From a virus: DNA of 35,374 nucleotides. The notes beneath the pieces were generated by a model. It saw only the letters and a list, made by a program, of their open reading frames with translations, made no database searches and was not told the DNA's origin. The translations under genes were made by a program, and so were the position numbers. Location of the stretch: IMG/VR virus record IMGVR_UViG_3300029908_000092, positions 1 to 35,374 of that record. One strand, given 5' to 3'. Shown in pieces: positions 10,970 through 29,705 of this stretch (the first letter of the stretch is position 1; each line of letters starts with the position of its first letter).

Positions 10970-11936
10970 GACCCAACTCCTTTGCGTATCCAATCAAGCT
11001 ATTTTTATCCATGGTGGAGACGAACATGTTTCTCATAAAATCTTCTAAATTGGTACCTGTTTTGCGATTTTCTGATCTAGATTTATCAGTTATCTTTGTT
11101 TTGATAGCCACCTTGCCCTTAAATTTAATCTTTTGCTTTGAGATCCAGTCTGATGAGCCTATAAGTTCTACGGCAGAACGTGAATTTTCTGGAATCACAG
11201 GCTCTTCATAGCCTTCCTGCCATGTAAAACTTAAAATAGGAATACAAACATCATTAGTAGGAATTAAGGTTTCTTTGAGAATCTTTCCGCTATCATCATG
11301 CTCGAATAGCCAGATACCTTTTATTTCATTACTATCTGAGATAGAATCCCAACGTGCAGTTCCGGGATAGATTACCTTACCGAAACGCTGCATGGCATGG
11401 ATATGTCCACTGATAATGATTTCAAACGGTAAATCGTCCGGATTGATACCATCGGGGGCATAAAAACCATTCTCGTATTGCGAACCGGCAAAAGTTTGGT
11501 GACAGACAAGGGTTTTAACGCCTTGTTCTTTAAGACCAAGCGCCAATTCTAGAAATCTTTTTTGATCGTGAACGTAAGCCATATAGCCTATAGAGCCGAC
11601 TATCATTGCGGTTTCCACTATATGTATATTTTTATTTTTCAATTTACTGAAAACACTGAGAGCATTGCTATTCGAACCGTAATCCCCAGACTGATCATGA
11701 TTACCCACTAAAACGTAAGTCGGACAAAGATCATTTAAAGTATCAAGCCAATCAGTCCAGAATTCCAAGACTTCTAATCTGAGGACTGAATGTGTATGAA
11801 ATAGATCACCTAAAATTTCTATTCGATCGACCTTATGTTCAAGAGCAATATCAACAACAAATTGCAGAAGTTTGTCTGACTCATTGATGTTGGATGGGCG
11901 AACGTGCGGGTCTCCCAAACGGAGAATCTTAATCAT
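10962..11936 (-). CDS. SbcD/gp47-like Mre11 nuclease subunit
   Basis: The protein has 324 residues. The phosphoesterase motifs are in order: D9-P-H11 (RLGDPHVRP), GD 43-44 (LGDLFHTHS), GNHD 78-81, a CHQTF His, and SGHIHAMQRFG with the final metal-binding His pair. The YPGTARWDS segment after the last motif is typical of SbcD, Mre11 and T4 gp47. The enzyme trims DNA ends with its gp46-type ATPase partner (6510-8561). The two subunits are usually adjacent; here about 2.4 kb with several other genes separates them. AAGGA lies 8 nt before the ATG. It overlaps a small membrane protein gene by 8 bp. Confidence 0.92.
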   Translation of the reverse strand: MIKILRLGDPHVRPSNINESDKLLQFVVDIALEHKVDRIEILGDLFHTHSVLRLEVLEFWTDWLDTLNDLCPTYVLVGNHDQSGDYGSNSNALSVFSKLKNKNIHIVETAMIVGSIGYMAYVHDQKRFLELALGLKEQGVKTLVCHQTFAGSQYENGFYAPDGINPDDLPFEIIISGHIHAMQRFGKVIYPGTARWDSISDSNEIKGIWLFEHDDSGKILKETLIPTNDVCIPILSFTWQEGYEEPVIPENSRSAVELIGSSDWISKQKIKFKGKVAIKTKITDKSRSENRKTGTNLEDFMRNMFVSTMDKNSLIGYAKELGLV

Positions 11937-12117
11937 TCAAAAGATCCTTCTTAAAGAATAATTTACAAGCACCTATAACAATTCCTACACCAGGAACTAC
12001 TAAAACGAGCAATCCTAGATACCATGCCTTTTTAAAAGCAAGAACTATTCCATAAAGACTTAGGCTGAATGAACTTACAATATATAGCAATAAACCCAAC
12101 GTAATTAATAGATTCAT
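11929..12117 (-). CDS. Small membrane protein with two transmembrane segments
   Basis: The protein has 62 residues with TAGGAG 6 nt before the ATG. Two hydrophobic stretches, about residues 3-27 and 32-54 (LGLLVLVVPGVGIVIGACKL), are joined by a short FKKAW loop, and the C-terminus is charged (FFKKDLLND). The topology resembles small phage inner-membrane proteins. A holin is possible by size and topology, but it sits among replication genes rather than beside the endolysin, so the role is open. Confidence 0.65.
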   Translation of the reverse strand: MNLLITLGLLLYIVSSFSLSLYGIVLAFKKAWYLGLLVLVVPGVGIVIGACKLFFKKDLLND

Positions 12118-12126
12118 AAAAATCTC

Positions 12127-12447
12127 CTAGGTAGGTGAAAAAAATTCGACATAAGCAGAATCTATAATCATAAATCTTCCACCTACTAGATCGCTTTGTA
12201 AGATGGTCTTTGCCCATGGAGCTGCATGAAGATCGTTTTCCTTGAAGTAAGCTTTATGGCCTTTACGTACCACGCGTCCATCGCTAAGCAGGGCATCCAT
12301 CAAAAGAGTTAGGCCCTTGACGCCAAGTTTCTGACTGGTCATAGCAAAACCGTTCTTGATTTCTGCCTTAAGATCTTCTTTTTGATATACTTCTACAATA
12401 ATCCTGTTGTTTACAGATACAGGTTTATCTAGCTCCAGAATCGTCAT
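12127..12447 (-). CDS. GroES-like co-chaperonin (tentative)
   Basis: The protein has 106 residues, close to GroES size (about 97). It begins with a beta strand containing NNRIIVEVY, as GroES begins with a strand around DRVIV. A loop rich in Gly, Thr, Ser and Lys follows at about 32-46 (NGFAMTSQKLGVKGL), where the GroES mobile loop would be. Then come strands with DGRVVRKGHKAYF and a final RFMIIDSAYVEFF, which fit the remaining strands of the beta-barrel. The similarity is in pattern rather than identity, so the call is tentative. A GroEL gene at 15288-17057 supports it. AAAGAGG lies about 8 nt before the ATG. Confidence 0.5.
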   Translation of the reverse strand: MTILELDKPVSVNNRIIVEVYQKEDLKAEIKNGFAMTSQKLGVKGLTLLMDALLSDGRVVRKGHKAYFKENDLHAAPWAKTILQSDLVGGRFMIIDSAYVEFFSPT

Positions 12448-12598
12448 CTTTGTCTACCTCTTTATTTGGACTTTTACTGTCTTGCAATATGATAACAAAA
12501 TATGCTATTCCGCACAAGAATAAAAACGCAAAACCTTTGCCGGCATCGACTAAAAAGTCATTCACCTTGCTAAAAATAGCCGGATCTATTGCATTCAC
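12425..12598 (-). CDS. Small single-span membrane protein, GTG start
   Basis: I found this 57-residue frame by direct translation. It starts with GTG at 12596-12598, overlapping the sigma-like gene's TGA in the GTGA form, and stops at 12425-12427 (TAA). One hydrophobic segment lies at about residues 23-39 (FAFLFLCGIAYFVIILQ). A polar, acidic tail rich in Asp and Lys follows. It overlaps the GroES-like gene by 23 bp. The stop-start coupling on one side and membrane-like composition make it credible. Function unknown; a small phage membrane protein or spanin-like piece are options. Confidence 0.6.
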   Translation of the reverse strand: MNAIDPAIFSKVNDFLVDAGKGFAFLFLCGIAYFVIILQDSKSPNKEVDKDDDSGAR

Positions 12599-13644
12599 AG
12601 CTTAATACCCTTTAATTTTAGTATTTTACGGTAGATTAATGGAAGATTCTTAGCCAAATTTAACATACGGCCTGTTGTTTCGTTTTGTATATAGGCCGCT
12701 TCGGTGTCTTGTCCAGGATCTTCTGTTCGATCGTAAAGATTCAAAAAGTTATCCCGATCCTCTGGATCTGGCTGTTGTGCTGTAGCGCTAATTGTGCTTG
12801 CGGCACTCATGAGATAACTTAACTGAGAAGCTATTACTCTTTCCTTCGGTATACTTTTGCCATCTTTTTGGTCCTGCTCAAAACTATTATTTACTGCGTG
12901 CGCAAGCTCATTCACTTCATCGATACCTTTTCGGCCTCTGATGGAATGTGCTTTATAAAGAATACGTTTATCGGATGGATAAAAATGCAACATCGTTTCA
13001 CTATATGCATCAATTAAATTCCCCACCATACGGCCGATGCAGACTCCACGAAACACTGGTGAATATGGACCGCACCACTTGTCAACTCCAGCAGCAAGAC
13101 CTTGAGCGCAGATTCCTATCATGTCCATTAGAGATAAATGGCTCTTTGGAGTTTTCCTATAAAATAGTTTGGCTCTATTTATGGCCAAAGGCATGTTGTT
13201 TTCAATCAGAATAGTTCTGGCGGTATGAACTCGTTGAAATAATTGATCTGCTCTTTTGGGAAATGGACCAAGCCAATTTTCCTTAATAAATTTAATAAGT
13301 TGATAATTAATATTGAAACTTTTTAAAACATCAATATTATTCTCTTTTATGGATGGTGTAATTTTTTTACTAAAAGTAATCGCTGTTTCCCTAAAATAGG
13401 GTCTAGCCGACAAAATATTTTTATTTTGAATACAAATACGTTGTAAAAATTTCTTATAGATTTCAGTAGCTTGTCTATATTTTAAAATAACTTCCTTGAA
13501 TTTTCGCTCAGCATCTAGAAGCTCTTCCACCTGTTCGGCTTGGGTGGTACCATCCTTATTGTTCGCCAAAGACCTAGTTACATCGATGGCAAGCTTGTAA
13601 AAGCTGTCATCAAAATGTTCATGATATTTCTTTGGTTTGGCCAT
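12595..13644 (-). CDS. Phage sigma-70-family factor (region 2)
   Basis: The protein has 349 residues. Residues 143-235 follow the sigma region 2 pattern: ILIENNMPLAINRAKLFYR (2.1, which binds the core enzyme in other sigmas), then SLMDMIGICAQGLAAGVDKW (2.2) and an arginine-rich helix (VFRGVCIGRMVGNLIDAY) where -10 recognition normally lies. The first 135 residues are helical and unlike known sigma domains. The C-terminus is short (LPLIYRKILKLKGI) and may be a remnant of region 4. It could direct polymerase to the extended -10 elements of this window; that is inference. The ATG has no Shine-Dalgarno site, and the predicted transcript starts at the A of the ATG. Confidence 0.75.
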   Translation of the reverse strand: MAKPKKYHEHFDDSFYKLAIDVTRSLANNKDGTTQAEQVEELLDAERKFKEVILKYRQATEIYKKFLQRICIQNKNILSARPYFRETAITFSKKITPSIKENNIDVLKSFNINYQLIKFIKENWLGPFPKRADQLFQRVHTARTILIENNMPLAINRAKLFYRKTPKSHLSLMDMIGICAQGLAAGVDKWCGPYSPVFRGVCIGRMVGNLIDAYSETMLHFYPSDKRILYKAHSIRGRKGIDEVNELAHAVNNSFEQDQKDGKSIPKERVIASQLSYLMSAASTISATAQQPDPEDRDNFLNLYDRTEDPGQDTEAAYIQNETTGRMLNLAKNLPLIYRKILKLKGIKL

Positions 13645-13678
13645 GTCTGTTTTATATCACAGACTTATATTATTTCAA
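13645..13678 (-). promoter_or_regulatory. Promoter of the sigma-like gene with an inverted repeat around its -10
   Basis: On the minus strand -35 TTGAAA (13673-13678), a 16-bp spacer and -10 TATAAA (13651-13656) with an upstream TGTGA are present. The -10 sits in the 8-bp loop of a perfect 6-bp inverted repeat, GTCTGT...ACAGAC (13645-13650 and 13659-13664). The start is predicted at 13644, the first base of the ATG. The repeat could be an operator or part of the transcript's 5' end. It overlaps the end of the helicase gene. Confidence 0.6.
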
Positions 13679-15184
13679 ACGAATTACCTTGATTTCTGAG
13701 CCAGATTCCCTATAGTAAAGAATTCTATCTTCTAGATGTTTTTTCATCAAAAACACGTCAGAAGCTGCGAAATCCCATATAGTGCATTTATCCTTGGGCA
13801 AACATTTGTTATGCCAAGGATTTTGGGTTCCCAGGCGTACGCTTCGCCCGATAGCACCTTGTTTGGTTTTGATCTCTGATGCTCCGCCCACCCAATTAAC
13901 CGTGTTAGCCATCGGATAGATGTTGGTGCCAGTGCTTATGCAGGATGTGCCAATAAGGACTTGGACTTCATTTTTATTGAATTTTTCTACACTTTCAGCA
14001 GGATCTACTTTCTGTAACCCAAGCTCTGCTAATCGCTCAGGTTTCGATTCACTGTGTGCATATGTCGTCGATACTTTGAGTAGTTTCATAAGCATGCTTA
14101 TTTGACTTAATTCCTCAACAAGTATCAATGTTTGTCTTTGGTATGTCATCGCCTCTGCGTTGGCTAATTTCGCTATGAAAGCTGCTATGTTCTTGTTTCC
14201 AAGATGATGTATACGTTTCATCTCTAATGCATCCGGTGTCATATAGTTCGGATTGCTAGATTCTAGCAGAACGATCTTGTAGTCGTGAGGACAGATATAG
14301 CCACCCCCCACGGCCTCTTGAGTGGAAAGCGTGTGAACAGTCTTTCCGATAATACTTTGTAAAAGTTTCTCAGAACCGTCACCACGCGTTTGTGTTCCGC
14401 TGCAGAAGAGTCGATATGGAACGTTGGCGAAGACGCCATGACAGACATTTTCTAGCGTTTCCGCACCCCACTGATGGGATTCGTCAACTAATATCATTTC
14501 CATATTACTAAAAAATTCCCATTCGGGCGATCCCATCTTTAAATTAGCAAGACTATCGCCAATACATACGGTAAATTTCTTATTTAAGACCTTTTTTCCA
14601 TCTCCAAAGCGTCCTACGACACCTTTTCCTAAATATTTATCAAAATTATTTAATAATTCATTGAAAATACTTCTAGAAGGTGCTACAATTGCGGTTTTGA
14701 ATCCTGTTTCTCTGCAAAGTTTAAGTAAAATTGCAGATTTTCCTGCTCCGGTACACAACTGCACGTTGCCATGTTTTATTTCTAAAAGTTTTTTCCAACT
14801 CTCCTCTTGATAAGGATGTAATGTGAACGGCAGTGGTTTTGCCCAAGCCACCTTCTTTGGCTTTGGATAATTTATTGTGTTATTGATTTCCAAACAATTT
14901 AAATTTTCTGCAGCCAAATAAGGGAGAGAGCCGGGTCTTACGAATGTTCTTAAGCCTTCTTCTTCAAAAATTAATGTGTTATGGACCAATGATTTCAATT
15001 CCTTAGAGCGAGTTTCCCAAGCATCTGCATTTTTAGCACGCAACCATTTATTAGCGCCGTGTCGTTTAAGTTGATGTTGAGCAGCCGTATTGGTATAACT
15101 TAAAGTTTTTTTCAAATAGGCCATTTCTTCGGGTGTCGATTCCACGATAAAGGCCTTAGTAGGTGATTCTATGTTAAACTTCAT
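13670..15184 (-). CDS. UvsW-like SF2 DNA helicase
   Basis: The protein has 504 residues from the ATG at 15182-15184; a reading three codons longer would need TTG. Motifs: Q-like LHPYQEESW (122-130), Walker A CTGAGKSA (144-151), DESH box (234-237), SGTQTRGDG motif III (near 262) and QGAIGRSVRLG motif VI in the C-terminal half. An N-terminal domain of about 110 residues precedes the core, as in UvsW. Such helicases unwind branched DNA, including R-loops and recombination intermediates, and help switch from origin- to recombination-dependent replication. No Shine-Dalgarno site is present; a TTGACT-17-TATACT promoter predicts a transcript starting two bases before the ATG. Confidence 0.9.
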   Translation of the reverse strand: MKFNIESPTKAFIVESTPEEMAYLKKTLSYTNTAAQHQLKRHGANKWLRAKNADAWETRSKELKSLVHNTLIFEEEGLRTFVRPGSLPYLAAENLNCLEINNTINYPKPKKVAWAKPLPFTLHPYQEESWKKLLEIKHGNVQLCTGAGKSAILLKLCRETGFKTAIVAPSRSIFNELLNNFDKYLGKGVVGRFGDGKKVLNKKFTVCIGDSLANLKMGSPEWEFFSNMEMILVDESHQWGAETLENVCHGVFANVPYRLFCSGTQTRGDGSEKLLQSIIGKTVHTLSTQEAVGGGYICPHDYKIVLLESSNPNYMTPDALEMKRIHHLGNKNIAAFIAKLANAEAMTYQRQTLILVEELSQISMLMKLLKVSTTYAHSESKPERLAELGLQKVDPAESVEKFNKNEVQVLIGTSCISTGTNIYPMANTVNWVGGASEIKTKQGAIGRSVRLGTQNPWHNKCLPKDKCTIWDFAASDVFLMKKHLEDRILYYRESGSEIKVIRLK

Positions 15185-15287: not shown

Positions 15288-17057
15288 ATGGCCCATCGTA
15301 AAGCAAAAACTGCCCCAAAAATCTTTGTATCAAATCAAGACACACTAAAAAAGATAATTTTAAAGACTCTAAAAGATGCTTCTACGATTGTATCTTCAAC
15401 ACTTGGGCCAGGGGGTCGCAACTGTCTAATCGAAAGTGATTTTCCAGGTTTGCCAAACAAAAACACCAAAGACGGAGTTACAGTGTTGAAATCATTAGGA
15501 TCTGTGGATTCATATGAGCACCTAATCCTTGAACAGGTCCGTGACGCTGCCATGCGAACCGCCAGTGAAGCTGGAGATGGTACTACCACAGCTACATTGC
15601 TGTCTTACAATATCGTAGAACAGCTATATGAGTTTTGCGAGAATAATCGCAAATACAGCCCTCAAAAGGCTGCTCGACACATTTCTAAGGTTACAAGAGA
15701 AATTTTAGTCCCCTATATTCGATCACGAAGCATAAAAATTGGAGAAGATAACAAAGAAATGCTAAAGATGGTCGCCAAAATCAGCGCTAACGGAGACCAG
15801 GACATGGCTGACGCTGTAATTAAGGCGTTTGAAGAAATCGGTTATGGAGATGCTTCACACGTCACCATTCGCGAATTGAGCGGGCCACAGGGCTATAAAG
15901 TAGAACGAATCGATGGATTCCCCATTCCAATGGGATACGAGGACAGCATTGGTAAATTTCACACGGCTTTCATAAACGACCAAGCAAATCAGCGTTGTTT
16001 CTTGGAAAAACCCCTTTTCTTACTTTATGATGGTCAAATCAACGATATGATGTCGGTTGCAGACCTTTTAAACAAAGTTGGCCAGGAATATGTCAATGGG
16101 AATGCTGATTTCAAAAATATCGTGATTTTTGCCCATGGATTCAGCGAAAATGTCCTTACAGCTCTAGCTTTCAACTTTGCAGATCCAAATACAATCAATG
16201 TGGTTCCCATGGTTACTCCCATGAGCCAATTTATCAATAGTCAATTGCATTTCTTGCAAGATTTATCTGCTTTTACTGGTGCCAGAATGTTCGGTTTTAA
16301 AGATCAAATAGGAACTGCGACGCCAGCTGATCTTGGCTCTGGTATGGAAAACTTTGAATGTTATCGATTTCGATCAACCGTTATAGGCGATCCAGATCCC
16401 ACAAATATTGAAGTTCGAGCGGATGATCTTAAGAAAATGAAAGACAATGCCGAAAGTCAGGCCGAAAAGATCTTTTTAGAAGAACGTATCGGTAAAATCA
16501 CCAATGGTATTGCAAAATTGACCATTTTTGGTGGTTCTAACGGAGAACTTAAAGAAGCTCACGATCGTTGTGAGGACGCTGTTTGTGCGGTTCGTAGCGC
16601 TATTACCCATGGAGCCCTTCCTGGTGGATGCAGAATAGCCATCGATATGGCTGTAAAACTTCTTCAGGATTTTCCTGCAGGTGATCCAGCACGAGATGTG
16701 CTATTTCCCGCCCTATTGTCATTGCCTACCAAACTGTTGGATAATGCCGGTTATTCTAAGGAAGAAATTGAGTCTACATTAGCAAAACTTGTCTCGGAAC
16801 CAGAATCTGTTTATGATGTTGAAAATGCAGTATTCGGAAAAGCCGAAGATTTAGGCTTGTTTGATGCAGCTAAAGCTGTTGAAGAATCTTTAAGTAATGC
16901 TGTTAGTATAGCAACCATTTTGGGAACTATGGGCGGCTTAATTTGTCATCCTCGTGATGGAGAATTTGAACGCTCTGAGGCTAGAGCAGATTCTGAGTTT
17001 ATGAAAAATGTGGAAAATCCGTTGGCAAATGTCAACGAGGCAAATTTACGCGGTTGA
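15288..17057 (+). CDS. groEL: GroEL-like group I chaperonin
   Basis: The protein has 589 residues against about 548 for bacterial GroEL. Signature elements are TLGPGG (38-43), KDGVTVLKS (61-69), GDGTTT (96-101, with the Asp87 equivalent at 97) and EDAV in the second equatorial part, with the ATPase Asp398 equivalent at 430. HGALPGGCRIA follows as in the family. The nucleotide-binding residues are therefore present and it should hydrolyse ATP. The C-terminus lacks the GGM repeats of host GroEL. Phages carry chaperonins to fold capsid proteins; its place upstream of terminase and portal fits. AGGAG lies 5 nt before the ATG. Confidence 0.95.
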   Translation: MAHRKAKTAPKIFVSNQDTLKKIILKTLKDASTIVSSTLGPGGRNCLIESDFPGLPNKNTKDGVTVLKSLGSVDSYEHLILEQVRDAAMRTASEAGDGTTTATLLSYNIVEQLYEFCENNRKYSPQKAARHISKVTREILVPYIRSRSIKIGEDNKEMLKMVAKISANGDQDMADAVIKAFEEIGYGDASHVTIRELSGPQGYKVERIDGFPIPMGYEDSIGKFHTAFINDQANQRCFLEKPLFLLYDGQINDMMSVADLLNKVGQEYVNGNADFKNIVIFAHGFSENVLTALAFNFADPNTINVVPMVTPMSQFINSQLHFLQDLSAFTGARMFGFKDQIGTATPADLGSGMENFECYRFRSTVIGDPDPTNIEVRADDLKKMKDNAESQAEKIFLEERIGKITNGIAKLTIFGGSNGELKEAHDRCEDAVCAVRSAITHGALPGGCRIAIDMAVKLLQDFPAGDPARDVLFPALLSLPTKLLDNAGYSKEEIESTLAKLVSEPESVYDVENAVFGKAEDLGLFDAAKAVEESLSNAVSIATILGTMGGLICHPRDGEFERSEARADSEFMKNVENPLANVNEANLRG

Positions 17058-28716: not shown

Positions 28717-28953
28717 TTACCATCGTCTAGAGTCCCACTCTTCCTGAGTAAGTGGTTCAATTGTAAACATTTTGCCTTTGACAGATTTTTCTACTAGCTC
28801 TAAAACCTCAAAAATCCTTACAAAAATTCGCTTACCTGCAAAACTATTATGAATTACTCTAAGATCGCAAGACTCGGTACCCATAACAATCCTGGTTTTG
28901 CAACCGGGGTACATATCTTTTAAAAGTTTTACGATTTTTTCTTTTTGATTCAT
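28717..28953 (-). CDS. Small unknown protein
   Basis: The protein has 78 residues with TAGGAA before the ATG. It begins with a basic helix (NQKEKIVKLLKDMYPG) and then has beta-like segments (CKTRIVMGTESCDLRVI and KRIFVRIFEVLEL). The ATG overlaps the upstream stop as TAATG. The family is not recognised. Confidence 0.55.
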   Translation of the reverse strand: MNQKEKIVKLLKDMYPGCKTRIVMGTESCDLRVIHNSFAGKRIFVRIFEVLELVEKSVKGKMFTIEPLTQEEWDSRRW

Positions 28954-29201
28954 TAAAGTGTTCCTATTTGTTTAAACCTAGGATGAACGAATTCAGTGGT
29001 CAAATTATTTATAAGCATCAAATGCTCTGGGTGAAGATATACGGTGCCAGTTAAGTGTGCCATTTCTCCACCATATTCGATGTTCCAGCCGTACTTATGC
29101 CATGGTAAATTCTCTTCTGCTACAATTTGAGTAGCTATGATAAATTCGTCAAGGGATTCTGAATAATACACGTAGGGTACATTTAAGGCCAGTTTTTTCA
29201 T
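28953..29201 (-). CDS. Small unknown protein, leaderless candidate
   Basis: The protein has 82 residues. It is rich in aromatic and acidic residues (VPYVYYSESLDEFIIATQIV and HKYGWNIEYGGEMAH). No family is recognised. The ATG at 29199-29201 has no Shine-Dalgarno site. A near-perfect sigma-70 promoter (TTGACA-17-TATATT) ends six bases upstream, which places the predicted start at the A of the ATG. It follows directly after the terminator-like hairpin of the RNA region. Confidence 0.6.
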   Translation of the reverse strand: MKKLALNVPYVYYSESLDEFIIATQIVAEENLPWHKYGWNIEYGGEMAHLTGTVYLHPEHLMLINNLTTEFVHPRFKQIGTL

Positions 29202-29207
29202 TTTTTA

Positions 29208-29236
29208 AATATACTCTAGCTGTCTTACTTTGTCAA
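29208..29236 (-). promoter_or_regulatory. Strong promoter TTGACA-17-TATATT
   Basis: On the minus strand -35 TTGACA (29231-29236, perfect consensus), 17 bp and -10 TATATT (29208-29213) are present. The predicted start is 29201, the first base of the ATG of the gene ending at 28953. The -35 touches the T-rich tail of the upstream hairpin, so termination of the RNA and this promoter are packed together. Confidence 0.7.
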
Positions 29237-29254
29237 GATAAACCCCTTACGGGG
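29235..29254 (-). terminator. Terminator-like hairpin at the end of the RNA region
   Basis: On the minus strand CCCC (29251-29254), a GTAA loop (29247-29250), GGGG (29243-29246) and then TTTATCTT (29235-29242) are present. The stem is short but all G-C, with a stable GNRA-type loop. The T-run is broken by one A and one C, so termination may be partial. Confidence 0.5.
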
Positions 29255-29690
29255 GTCAATCGGCATGCCATAAGCCACGCATGCTATGGCCTTCGACCAA
29301 TTCTCCGCCGGTCTAGTCTCAGATTTCATCTTAATCATGGGCGCATGATTACGAACCTGGCGGACTGAAACAAAAGAATGTGCAGATCAGTCGCTAGCTG
29401 ACTAATAGGTGTATCTTTTCGTTGGCTTCTCAACATCCATCTCTGGAATAGATCCGCCGCCTCTACAGAGCATTCTTAGGTGAACTTCAAACGACTTAAC
29501 CTATGTCGTACTCTCTTGCGTGTCTCCAGTGGCTCCTGCTCCCAGCTTTCGCCAGGTCGACTCCACAGCTTTCCACGCCGCTGCACAAAGTAACTGAAAG
29601 AACGGTTAACCCGCATCCGCTCTAGGTGGTGTAGACCTAACTTAAGCTGGTCGTGGCGGCGGCTCCCTAAACTACACAGCAACCTGTTAC
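29236..29690 (-). ncRNA. Probable large structured non-coding RNA (about 455 nt)
   Basis: This is the only stretch over 300 bases without a credible gene. It is GC-rich against its surroundings (38 of 60 bases are G or C at 29521-29580). On the minus strand it has an 8-bp long-range helix, CCGCCGCC (29655-29662) with GGCGGCGG (29454-29461). Local stems include TAATCATG/CATGATTA (29332-29351, loop of 4), TCCGCC/GGCGGA (29359-29364 with 29304-29309), GCCATA/TATGGC (29285-29290 with 29267-29272), TAGGT/ACCTA (29623-29639) and GCGTG/CACGC (29574-29578 with 29518-29522). GNRA-type loops GAAA (29547-29550), GAGA (29440-29443) and GTAA (29247-29250) are present. An extended -10 promoter and a terminator-like hairpin flank it. 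I do not recognise tmRNA, RNase P RNA or intron signatures. Large ornate phage RNAs such as GOLLD or ROOL are candidate relatives by size. Confidence 0.65.
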
Positions 29691-29696
29691 AGTTCT

Positions 29697-29705
29697 ATTA
29701 TAGCA
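29697..29705 (-). promoter_or_regulatory. Extended -10 promoter of the RNA (TGCTATAAT)
   Basis: The minus strand reads TGCTATAAT, a perfect extended -10 with consensus TATAAT at 29697-29702. The predicted start is about 29690. No matching -35 is seen. It lies just after the stop of the gene at 29714-30019 and has no open reading frame with a ribosome site downstream. Confidence 0.6.

What the first reader, a model, noticed from the sequence alone, without database searches (positions are those of the whole stretch)
29236..29690. Probable large, ornate phage RNA with its own promoter and terminator-like hairpin
A roughly 455-nt, GC-rich stretch has no credible protein but many complementary segments on the minus strand: an 8-bp long-range G-C helix, a perfect 8-bp hairpin, several 4-6-bp stems and three GNRA-type loops. 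A perfect extended -10 starts it and a G-C hairpin with a T-rich tail ends it. Large structured RNAs (for example GOLLD, ROOL and OLE classes) occur in phages and their functions are poorly known. I could not match it to a known class, so it may be a new one.
Basis: partly seen in the sequence, partly recalled or inferred. Interest (0 to 1): 0.85.

Follow-up and report, generated by a model that had tools for sequence, protein, structure and literature searches.

The report
New phage tRNA-like RNA family
The stretch does encode a structured phage RNA, but its conserved heart is about 209 nucleotides built on a transfer-RNA frame without an anticodon arm, and it belongs to a widespread, unannotated family of phage RNAs whose job is unknown.

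Summary
The conserved unit is 29379-29587(-). I found about 40 same-type ('class I') and more than 100 shorter ('class II') relatives in uncultivated phages, bacterial prophages and at least four cultured phages (Caulobacter DMCA, Alcaligenes QDWS595, Komagataeibacter phiKX1, Pseudanabaena Pan3), where they lie in unannotated gaps.

Covariation is overwhelming: 95.8% and 99.6% of cells pair; scores 0.66 and 0.52 against 0.18 and 0.11 in shuffles.

The geometry is that of tRNA: 7-bp acceptor stem, 2-nt CG linker, 5-bp D-arm, and a 5-bp T-arm joined to the acceptor without a gap. The anticodon arm is replaced by a variable domain (115 nt in the window). Class II keeps tRNA elbow letters (D-loop GAWGGA, T-loop UNUCRANY). 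Class I has a helix inserted in the D-loop and T-loop AGUMGCGN. The loop types do not mix (40/40 against 98/108).

Best mechanism: a phage tRNA mimic, processed like tRNA, that engages tRNA-binding proteins or nucleases. The structure is shown; expression, processing and function are inferred. Copies often sit directly before a gene, so a cis role is a serious rival.

The parts
29697..29702 (-). extended -10 (TGC-TATAAT) of the presumed promoter; start of transcription near 29690
   Evidence: sequence; no -35 partner in the scan
29588..29690 (-). presumed 5' leader, no relatives found; predicted to be cut off if RNase P acts
   Evidence: core-only homology; processing is inference
29379..29587 (-). 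conserved tRNA-like RNA core, class I
   Evidence: model R1 102 bits, R2 98.8 bits (the window is a training member, but its first relatives came from BLAST and pattern searches); its own MFE forms acceptor, D-stem, P3 and T-arm
29581..29587 (-). acceptor (P1) 5' strand UGUGCAG
   Evidence: all 8 aligned P1 pairs covary
29379..29385 (-). acceptor (P1) 3' strand CUGCACA
29574..29578 (-). D-stem (P2) 5' strand GCGUG, after 2-nt linker CG (29579-29580)
   Evidence: invariance partly by search design
29518..29522 (-). D-stem (P2) 3' strand CACGC
29523..29573 (-). D-loop of class I: GAAAGCU, inserted helix P3 (GUGG 29563-29566 / CCAC 29529-29532), UGGAGA
   Evidence: 4 of 5 P3 pairs change on both sides
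29403..29517 (-). variable domain (115 nt) in the place of the anticodon arm
   Evidence: alignments
29386..29402 (-). T-arm (H4): GUCAG - loop CUAGCGA - CUGAU, directly adjoining the acceptor; family loop AGUMGCGN, here one base short
   Evidence: all 5 pairs change on both sides; loop table
29240..29378 (-). presumed 3' trailer with hairpin CCCCGUAAGGGG (29243-29254), weak T tail
29208..29236 (-). promoter-like TTGACA-17-TATATT (11 of 12) of the next gene (28953-29201), a separate unit

Best explanation
The feature is one member of a large, unannotated family of phage RNAs built on a tRNA frame. SHOWN by comparative sequence: a 7-bp acceptor stem, 2-nt linker, D-arm, variable domain instead of an anticodon arm, and a T-arm adjoining the acceptor, in two subclasses whose D-loop and T-loop types change together. 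INFERRED: the D- and T-loops meet in a tRNA-like elbow, and the transcript from the promoter at 29702 is trimmed like pre-tRNA (RNase P between 29588 and 29587, a 3' tRNA-processing nuclease after 29379), releasing a ~209-nt RNA. INFERRED, weaker: the mature RNA acts in trans as a tRNA mimic that occupies or recruits tRNA-binding proteins (for example tRNA-cutting defence nucleases, tRNA processing or translation factors), with the variable domain giving specificity. The confidence given is for the tRNA-like family statement; I put tRNA-style processing at about 0.5 and the trans-mimic function at about 0.35.
For: Covariation: class I 95.8% of cells paired, score 0.662 vs 0.183 shuffled, 17 of 23 pairs changed on both sides, same with 44 copies; class II 99.6%, 0.515 vs 0.108. 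Geometry: 107 of 117 testable class II copies have acceptor-CG-D-arm...T-arm-acceptor spacing, 94 with 7/7 acceptor pairs; shuffled sequence gives 2 of 156. Loop coupling: 40/40 class I AGUMGCG; class II 98/108 UCRANY, none AGUMGCG. The class II model finds class I copies. Class II copies lie near tRNA genes more often than random positions (11/107 vs mean 3.0, max 8 of 200 draws) and inside tRNA clusters in L150 and L167. Not coding. Elbow anatomy and elbow readers such as RNase P and RNase Z: PMC4810234.
Against: No transcript, processing or bound protein was observed. Members were fished with exact D-arm motifs, so the D-arm's invariance is partly by construction and variants are under-sampled. 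No CCA is encoded and the discriminator base is not fixed. Class I T-loops do not look like tRNA T-loops, so the elbow contact is inferred there from coupling only. The window's own T-loop is one base short.
Confidence: 0.85

Rival explanations
1. A cis-acting mRNA leader: the tRNA-like fold at the 5' end of phage mRNAs protects or processes them (tRNA-style punctuation, or resistance to exonucleases) and so controls the downstream gene.
For: 19 of 44 copies are followed within 45 nt by a Shine-Dalgarno and start codon, against 5.9 in shuffles, max 12; leaders of helicase, chaperonin and SSB genes. In L035 the RNA begins right after a TATAAT.
Against: Downstream genes differ from copy to copy; many copies have none, including the window, where the next gene has its own promoter. 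Some copies are followed by T-runs, tandem copies or tRNAs. No base pairing to the ribosome site was seen.
Confidence: 0.3
2. An aberrant but working tRNA or tmRNA-like adaptor that is charged and enters the ribosome.
For: Acceptor, D-arm and T-arm geometry as in tRNA; the prophage member L263 is only 78 nt.
Against: No anticodon arm position is conserved, no encoded CCA, no fixed discriminator; ARAGORN finds neither tRNA nor tmRNA at these places; Rfam tRNA and tmRNA models do not match.
Confidence: 0.08
3. The whole 455-nt transcript is one ornate RNA, and the core is just its best conserved part.
For: One promoter at 29702 and no recognisable -10 right before the core; both flanks can fold.
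Confidence: 0.1
4. A tRNA remnant of an integration (att) site.
For: In Caulobacter phage DMCA the RNA lies next to an integrase gene.
Against: Covariation in all variable stems and coupled loops across diverse phages.
Confidence: 0.02

Closest known systems
Transfer RNA (Rfam RF00005)
   Same: 7-bp acceptor, 2-nt linker, D-arm with GG in the loop (class II), 5-bp T-arm adjoining the acceptor, UCRANY end of the T-loop (class II), nearness to tRNA genes
   Different: No anticodon arm; 45-150 nt variable domain; near-invariant 5-bp GCGUG/CACGC D-stem; 8-nt T-loop; no CCA; class I has a helix in the D-loop and a different T-loop
tmRNA
   Same: tRNA-like ends with a non-tRNA insert in place of the anticodon arm; some variable domains can form H-type pseudoknots
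   Different: Much shorter (93-240 nt), no tag frame conserved, not called by ARAGORN or Rfam
T4 rnaC (species 1 stable RNA)
   Same: Phage stable RNA in a tRNA cluster with a tRNA-like T-arm at its 3' end
   Different: No match to model R1 or R3; its acceptor is imperfect; no shared D-arm
Bacterial Y RNA YrlA (from general knowledge)
   Same: Non-coding RNA with a tRNA-like module
   Different: YrlA's tRNA module is described as lying away from the RNA ends, whereas here the ends form the acceptor; no Rfam match
GOLLD / ROOL / OLE large RNAs
   Same: Structured non-coding RNAs; GOLLD and ROOL occur in phages
   Different: No match to any Rfam model at E up to 10; far smaller; tRNA frame

Membership tests
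tRNA | 7-bp acceptor with T-arm adjoining it and 2-nt linker to the D-arm | tested here: met
   window 29379-29587
tRNA | anticodon arm with 7-nt loop | tested here: not met
   replaced by a variable domain; no ARAGORN call
tRNA | match to Rfam RF00005 | tested here: not met
tRNA | aminoacylated, used in decoding | not testable with these tools
   needs a charging assay
tmRNA | ARAGORN/Rfam tmRNA signal with tag peptide | tested here: not met
GOLLD/ROOL/OLE | match to the Rfam covariance model | tested here: not met
T4 rnaC/rnaD | sequence-structure homology | tested here: not met
   no hit of R1 at E up to 10 or R3 at E up to 1 in L120
YrlA Y RNA | Ro60/Rsr-binding stem and partner protein | not tested
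   no Rfam match of any kind; partner gene not searched
this new family, class I | CGGCGUGGAAAGCU-P3-URRAGACACGC D-arm, covarying acceptor and T-stem, AGUMGCGN T-loop | tested here: met
   the window's T-loop is CUAGCGA, one base short

The most novel reading that the evidence does not exclude
A categorically new class of phage effector RNA: a tRNA elbow-and-acceptor scaffold that presents a fast-evolving domain in place of the anticodon arm, with a second, non-canonical elbow type (class I) not known from tRNA, used against or in place of host tRNA machinery.
Probability: 0.35. Interest if true: 0.93.

Novelty: new variant of a known kind. Interest (0 to 1): 0.83.

Why it matters
Phages are known to carry tRNAs, but a family of anticodon-less tRNA mimics in well over a hundred phage and prophage sequences has gone unannotated: Rfam 15 lacks it, ARAGORN misses it, and I found no paper on it in the open-access library searched. 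It may add a new arm to phage-host conflict over tRNA (tRNA-cutting defences, tRNA processing, translation take-over). It also offers a natural experiment in RNA folding: two elbow designs on one frame whose D- and T-loops switch together. Members in cultured phages of Caulobacter, Alcaligenes, Komagataeibacter and Pseudanabaena and in a Paludibacterium prophage make it testable now.

Tried and rejected
GOLLD/ROOL/OLE or any other Rfam family: no match. Group I intron: the string GAGACUAGAC in the 3' flank recalls the R element of group I introns, but no P7 partner fits and Rfam finds nothing. T4 rnaC/rnaD as homologues: no model match; the shared word AGUAGCG is in a stem there. CsrA decoy: the GGA motifs are not conserved in the T-arm. 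Retron: no reverse transcriptase seen next to the RNAs (the RT-15 RNA in L070 is elsewhere). HNH-associated RNA (HEARO type): related HNH-like neighbours recur in only five groups of contigs and not next to the RNA as a rule. Folding energy as evidence: weak, z -0.4 to -1.6. The RNA-like island of L002 (18490-18740) is not a member. L080 from the genome scan is a chance hit in a coding sequence. INPHARED relatives by class I sequence: none convincing; class II sequence found them. Searches with neighbouring proteins gave few leads: the protein next to the RNA found no relative and the first portal search only one.

Full report
WHAT WAS CLAIMED. A ~455-nt minus-strand RNA at 29236-29690 with promoter, terminator-like hairpin and an ornate fold, possibly a new class. 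The window is a 35,374-base virus record, related to Myxococcus phage Mx1 (portal 46% identical) and to about 40 uncultivated phages.

CHECK OF THE SEQUENCE. The gap is non-coding, GC-rich (48% against 39%) and starts with an extended -10. Its folding energy is only mildly low (z -1.6), so energy alone would not settle the matter. Rfam has no match, even at E up to 10. DNA searches of phage and plasmid records with the whole stretch found nothing useful. The island is not fixed in this phage group: in L004 the endolysin frame (11313-11918) and the next conserved gene (12042-13856) lie about 120 nt apart, and L002 has a different island.

FIRST RELATIVES. Searching the relatives' whole contigs with the RNA gave two short but real matches, in L035/G030 and in G020. 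Side by side they show one conserved unit closed by a helix (P1) that pairs in all three with different letters: UGUGCAG/CUGCACA, UGAGCAA/UUGCUCA, GCUGUGG/CCACAGC. A pattern from two conserved blocks (GCGTGGAAAGCT N25-55 AGACACGC) then hit 25 viral contigs. Nearly all have the same P1 and a hairpin with loop AGUMGCGN directly before the 3' strand of P1. Neither element was in the search pattern.

COVARIATION. On 22 aligned members 95.8% of cells pair (70.9% in shuffles), 17 of 23 pairs change on both sides, and the covariation score is 0.662 against 0.183, reached by none of 500 shuffles; sliding the partners by 1-3 columns drops pairing to 30-43%. On 44 distinct copies found by the covariance model the values are the same, though that alignment is fitted to the model. 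The D-stem GCGUG/CACGC is nearly invariant, but it was the bait, so it counts for little. Copies are often multiple or tandem (G040, G056, G044, G042, G057, G060, G020). They occur in Mx1-like phages and in phages without an Mx1-like portal. They are not protein-coding.

THE tRNA FRAME. Some weak hits lacked helix P3 and had a closed hairpin GCGUG-GAAGGA-CACGC. Of 117 copies long enough to test, 107 have this order: 7-nt acceptor strand, CG, 5-bp D-arm, a variable stretch, 5-bp T-arm, and the acceptor's 3' strand with no gap; 94 have 7/7 acceptor pairs. This is tRNA spacing, with a variable domain where the anticodon arm should be. Shuffling the downstream sequence gives a 7/7 solution in 2 of 156 cases. 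The T-loop of this class II is UAUCAAGC and variants (UNUCRANY), whose last six letters match the tRNA T-loop; the D-loop GAWGGA holds a GG like the one that meets the T-loop in tRNA (elbow anatomy: PMC4810234). In 40 aligned members 99.6% of cells pair, score 0.515 against 0.108.

TWO COUPLED ELBOWS. Using geometry only, with no T-loop pattern, all 40 class I copies (D-loop GAAAGCU-P3-URRAGA) have the AGUMGCG loop type. Of 108 class II copies 98 have UCRANY, 10 are other or false, and none has AGUMGCG. The loops change together, as expected if they touch. The class II model finds class I copies it was not built from (L090 E 1e-6, L109 2e-6, L095 2e-5), so the classes are homologous. G020 carries both.

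WHERE IT LIVES. Class II RNAs lie in unannotated gaps of cultured phages: Caulobacter phage DMCA, Alcaligenes phage vB_Af_QDWS595 (Schitoviridae), Komagataeibacter phage phiKX1 (near tRNA-Met) and Pseudanabaena phage Pan3. Seven of 300 genomes drawn as relatives of the Paludibacterium genome carry one at E below 0.001, one of them only 78 nt long. Class I occurs in a Paludibacterium prophage and in two MAGs, one gammaproteobacterial and one of Armatimonadota. Class II copies lie near tRNA genes more often than random positions do (11/107 within 300 nt; mean 3.0, max 8 in 200 draws), and in L150 and L167 inside a tRNA cluster. Rfam and ARAGORN do not report those tested. No E. coli genome matched the one class II sequence tried. 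Text searches for the motif or for such RNAs found no paper, but only an open-access library was searched.

HOW IT MAY WORK. Shown: an evolutionarily maintained tRNA-like fold with coupled loops. Inferred: tRNA-style processing; in the window this would remove a ~102-nt leader and a ~140-nt trailer from a ~209-nt RNA, which would explain why only the core is conserved. Inferred and less sure: a trans-acting tRNA mimic that engages tRNA-binding proteins; PMC4810234 lists RNase P, RNase Z, synthetases and the ribosome among elbow readers. The main rival is a cis role, because 19 of 44 copies found with the class I model are followed within 45 nt by a Shine-Dalgarno and start codon (5.9 expected). 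Both can hold if the RNA is cut from the 5' end of an mRNA.

CAVEATS. Members were collected by exact D-arm motifs, so D-arm variants are under-sampled and its invariance is partly by construction. Counting cells ignores shared ancestry. P1 in the first table was located by looking for complementarity; the later geometry test has a null. No transcript was observed.

Noticed in passing
L002:18490-18740 (minus): In the relative L002 the place after the endolysin gene holds a different RNA-like island with its own 8-bp closing helix AACGATGG/CCATCGTT followed by seven T; it matches neither Rfam nor the models here.
   Followed up: partly
L009:9358-9671, L011:16709-17389, L014:11024-12102, L026:18041-18591: Several Mx1-like phages have a non-coding, often GC-rich island just after the endolysin gene; L014's holds a class II RNA, the others are unexplained.
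   Followed up: partly
L261:1298-1458; L245, L246, L247 (class I inserts): The variable domain of the Pan3 RNA and the P3 inserts of some class I RNAs contain stretches that read like whole or circularly permuted tRNA pieces (T-arm GUGGGUUCGAUUCCCGC and similar); ARAGORN does not call them.
   Followed up: partly
L127, L135, L139, L141 variable domains: Several class II variable domains can form H-type pseudoknots well above shuffles (mean z 0.57 over 69 domains, strong in a few).
   Followed up: partly
G056:155076-156207, G044:92952-93320, G040:49398-49856: Tandem, diverged copies of the RNA in single large phages, suggesting specialised copies.
   Followed up: no
window 15288-17057: The phage encodes a chaperonin of the Cpn60 family; in the related contig L075/L091 the class I RNA lies directly before this gene.
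   Followed up: partly
L070:3246-3432: The same Paludibacterium prophage contig carries an Rfam RT-15 RNA (RF03018), about 9 kb from the tRNA-like RNA.
   Followed up: no
NC_000866 70908-71046 (L120:409-547, minus): T4 rnaC, a stable RNA in the T4 tRNA cluster, folds far better than shuffles (z -4.6) and ends in a tRNA-like T-arm; it is another phage tRNA-like RNA, not a match to these models.
   Followed up: partly
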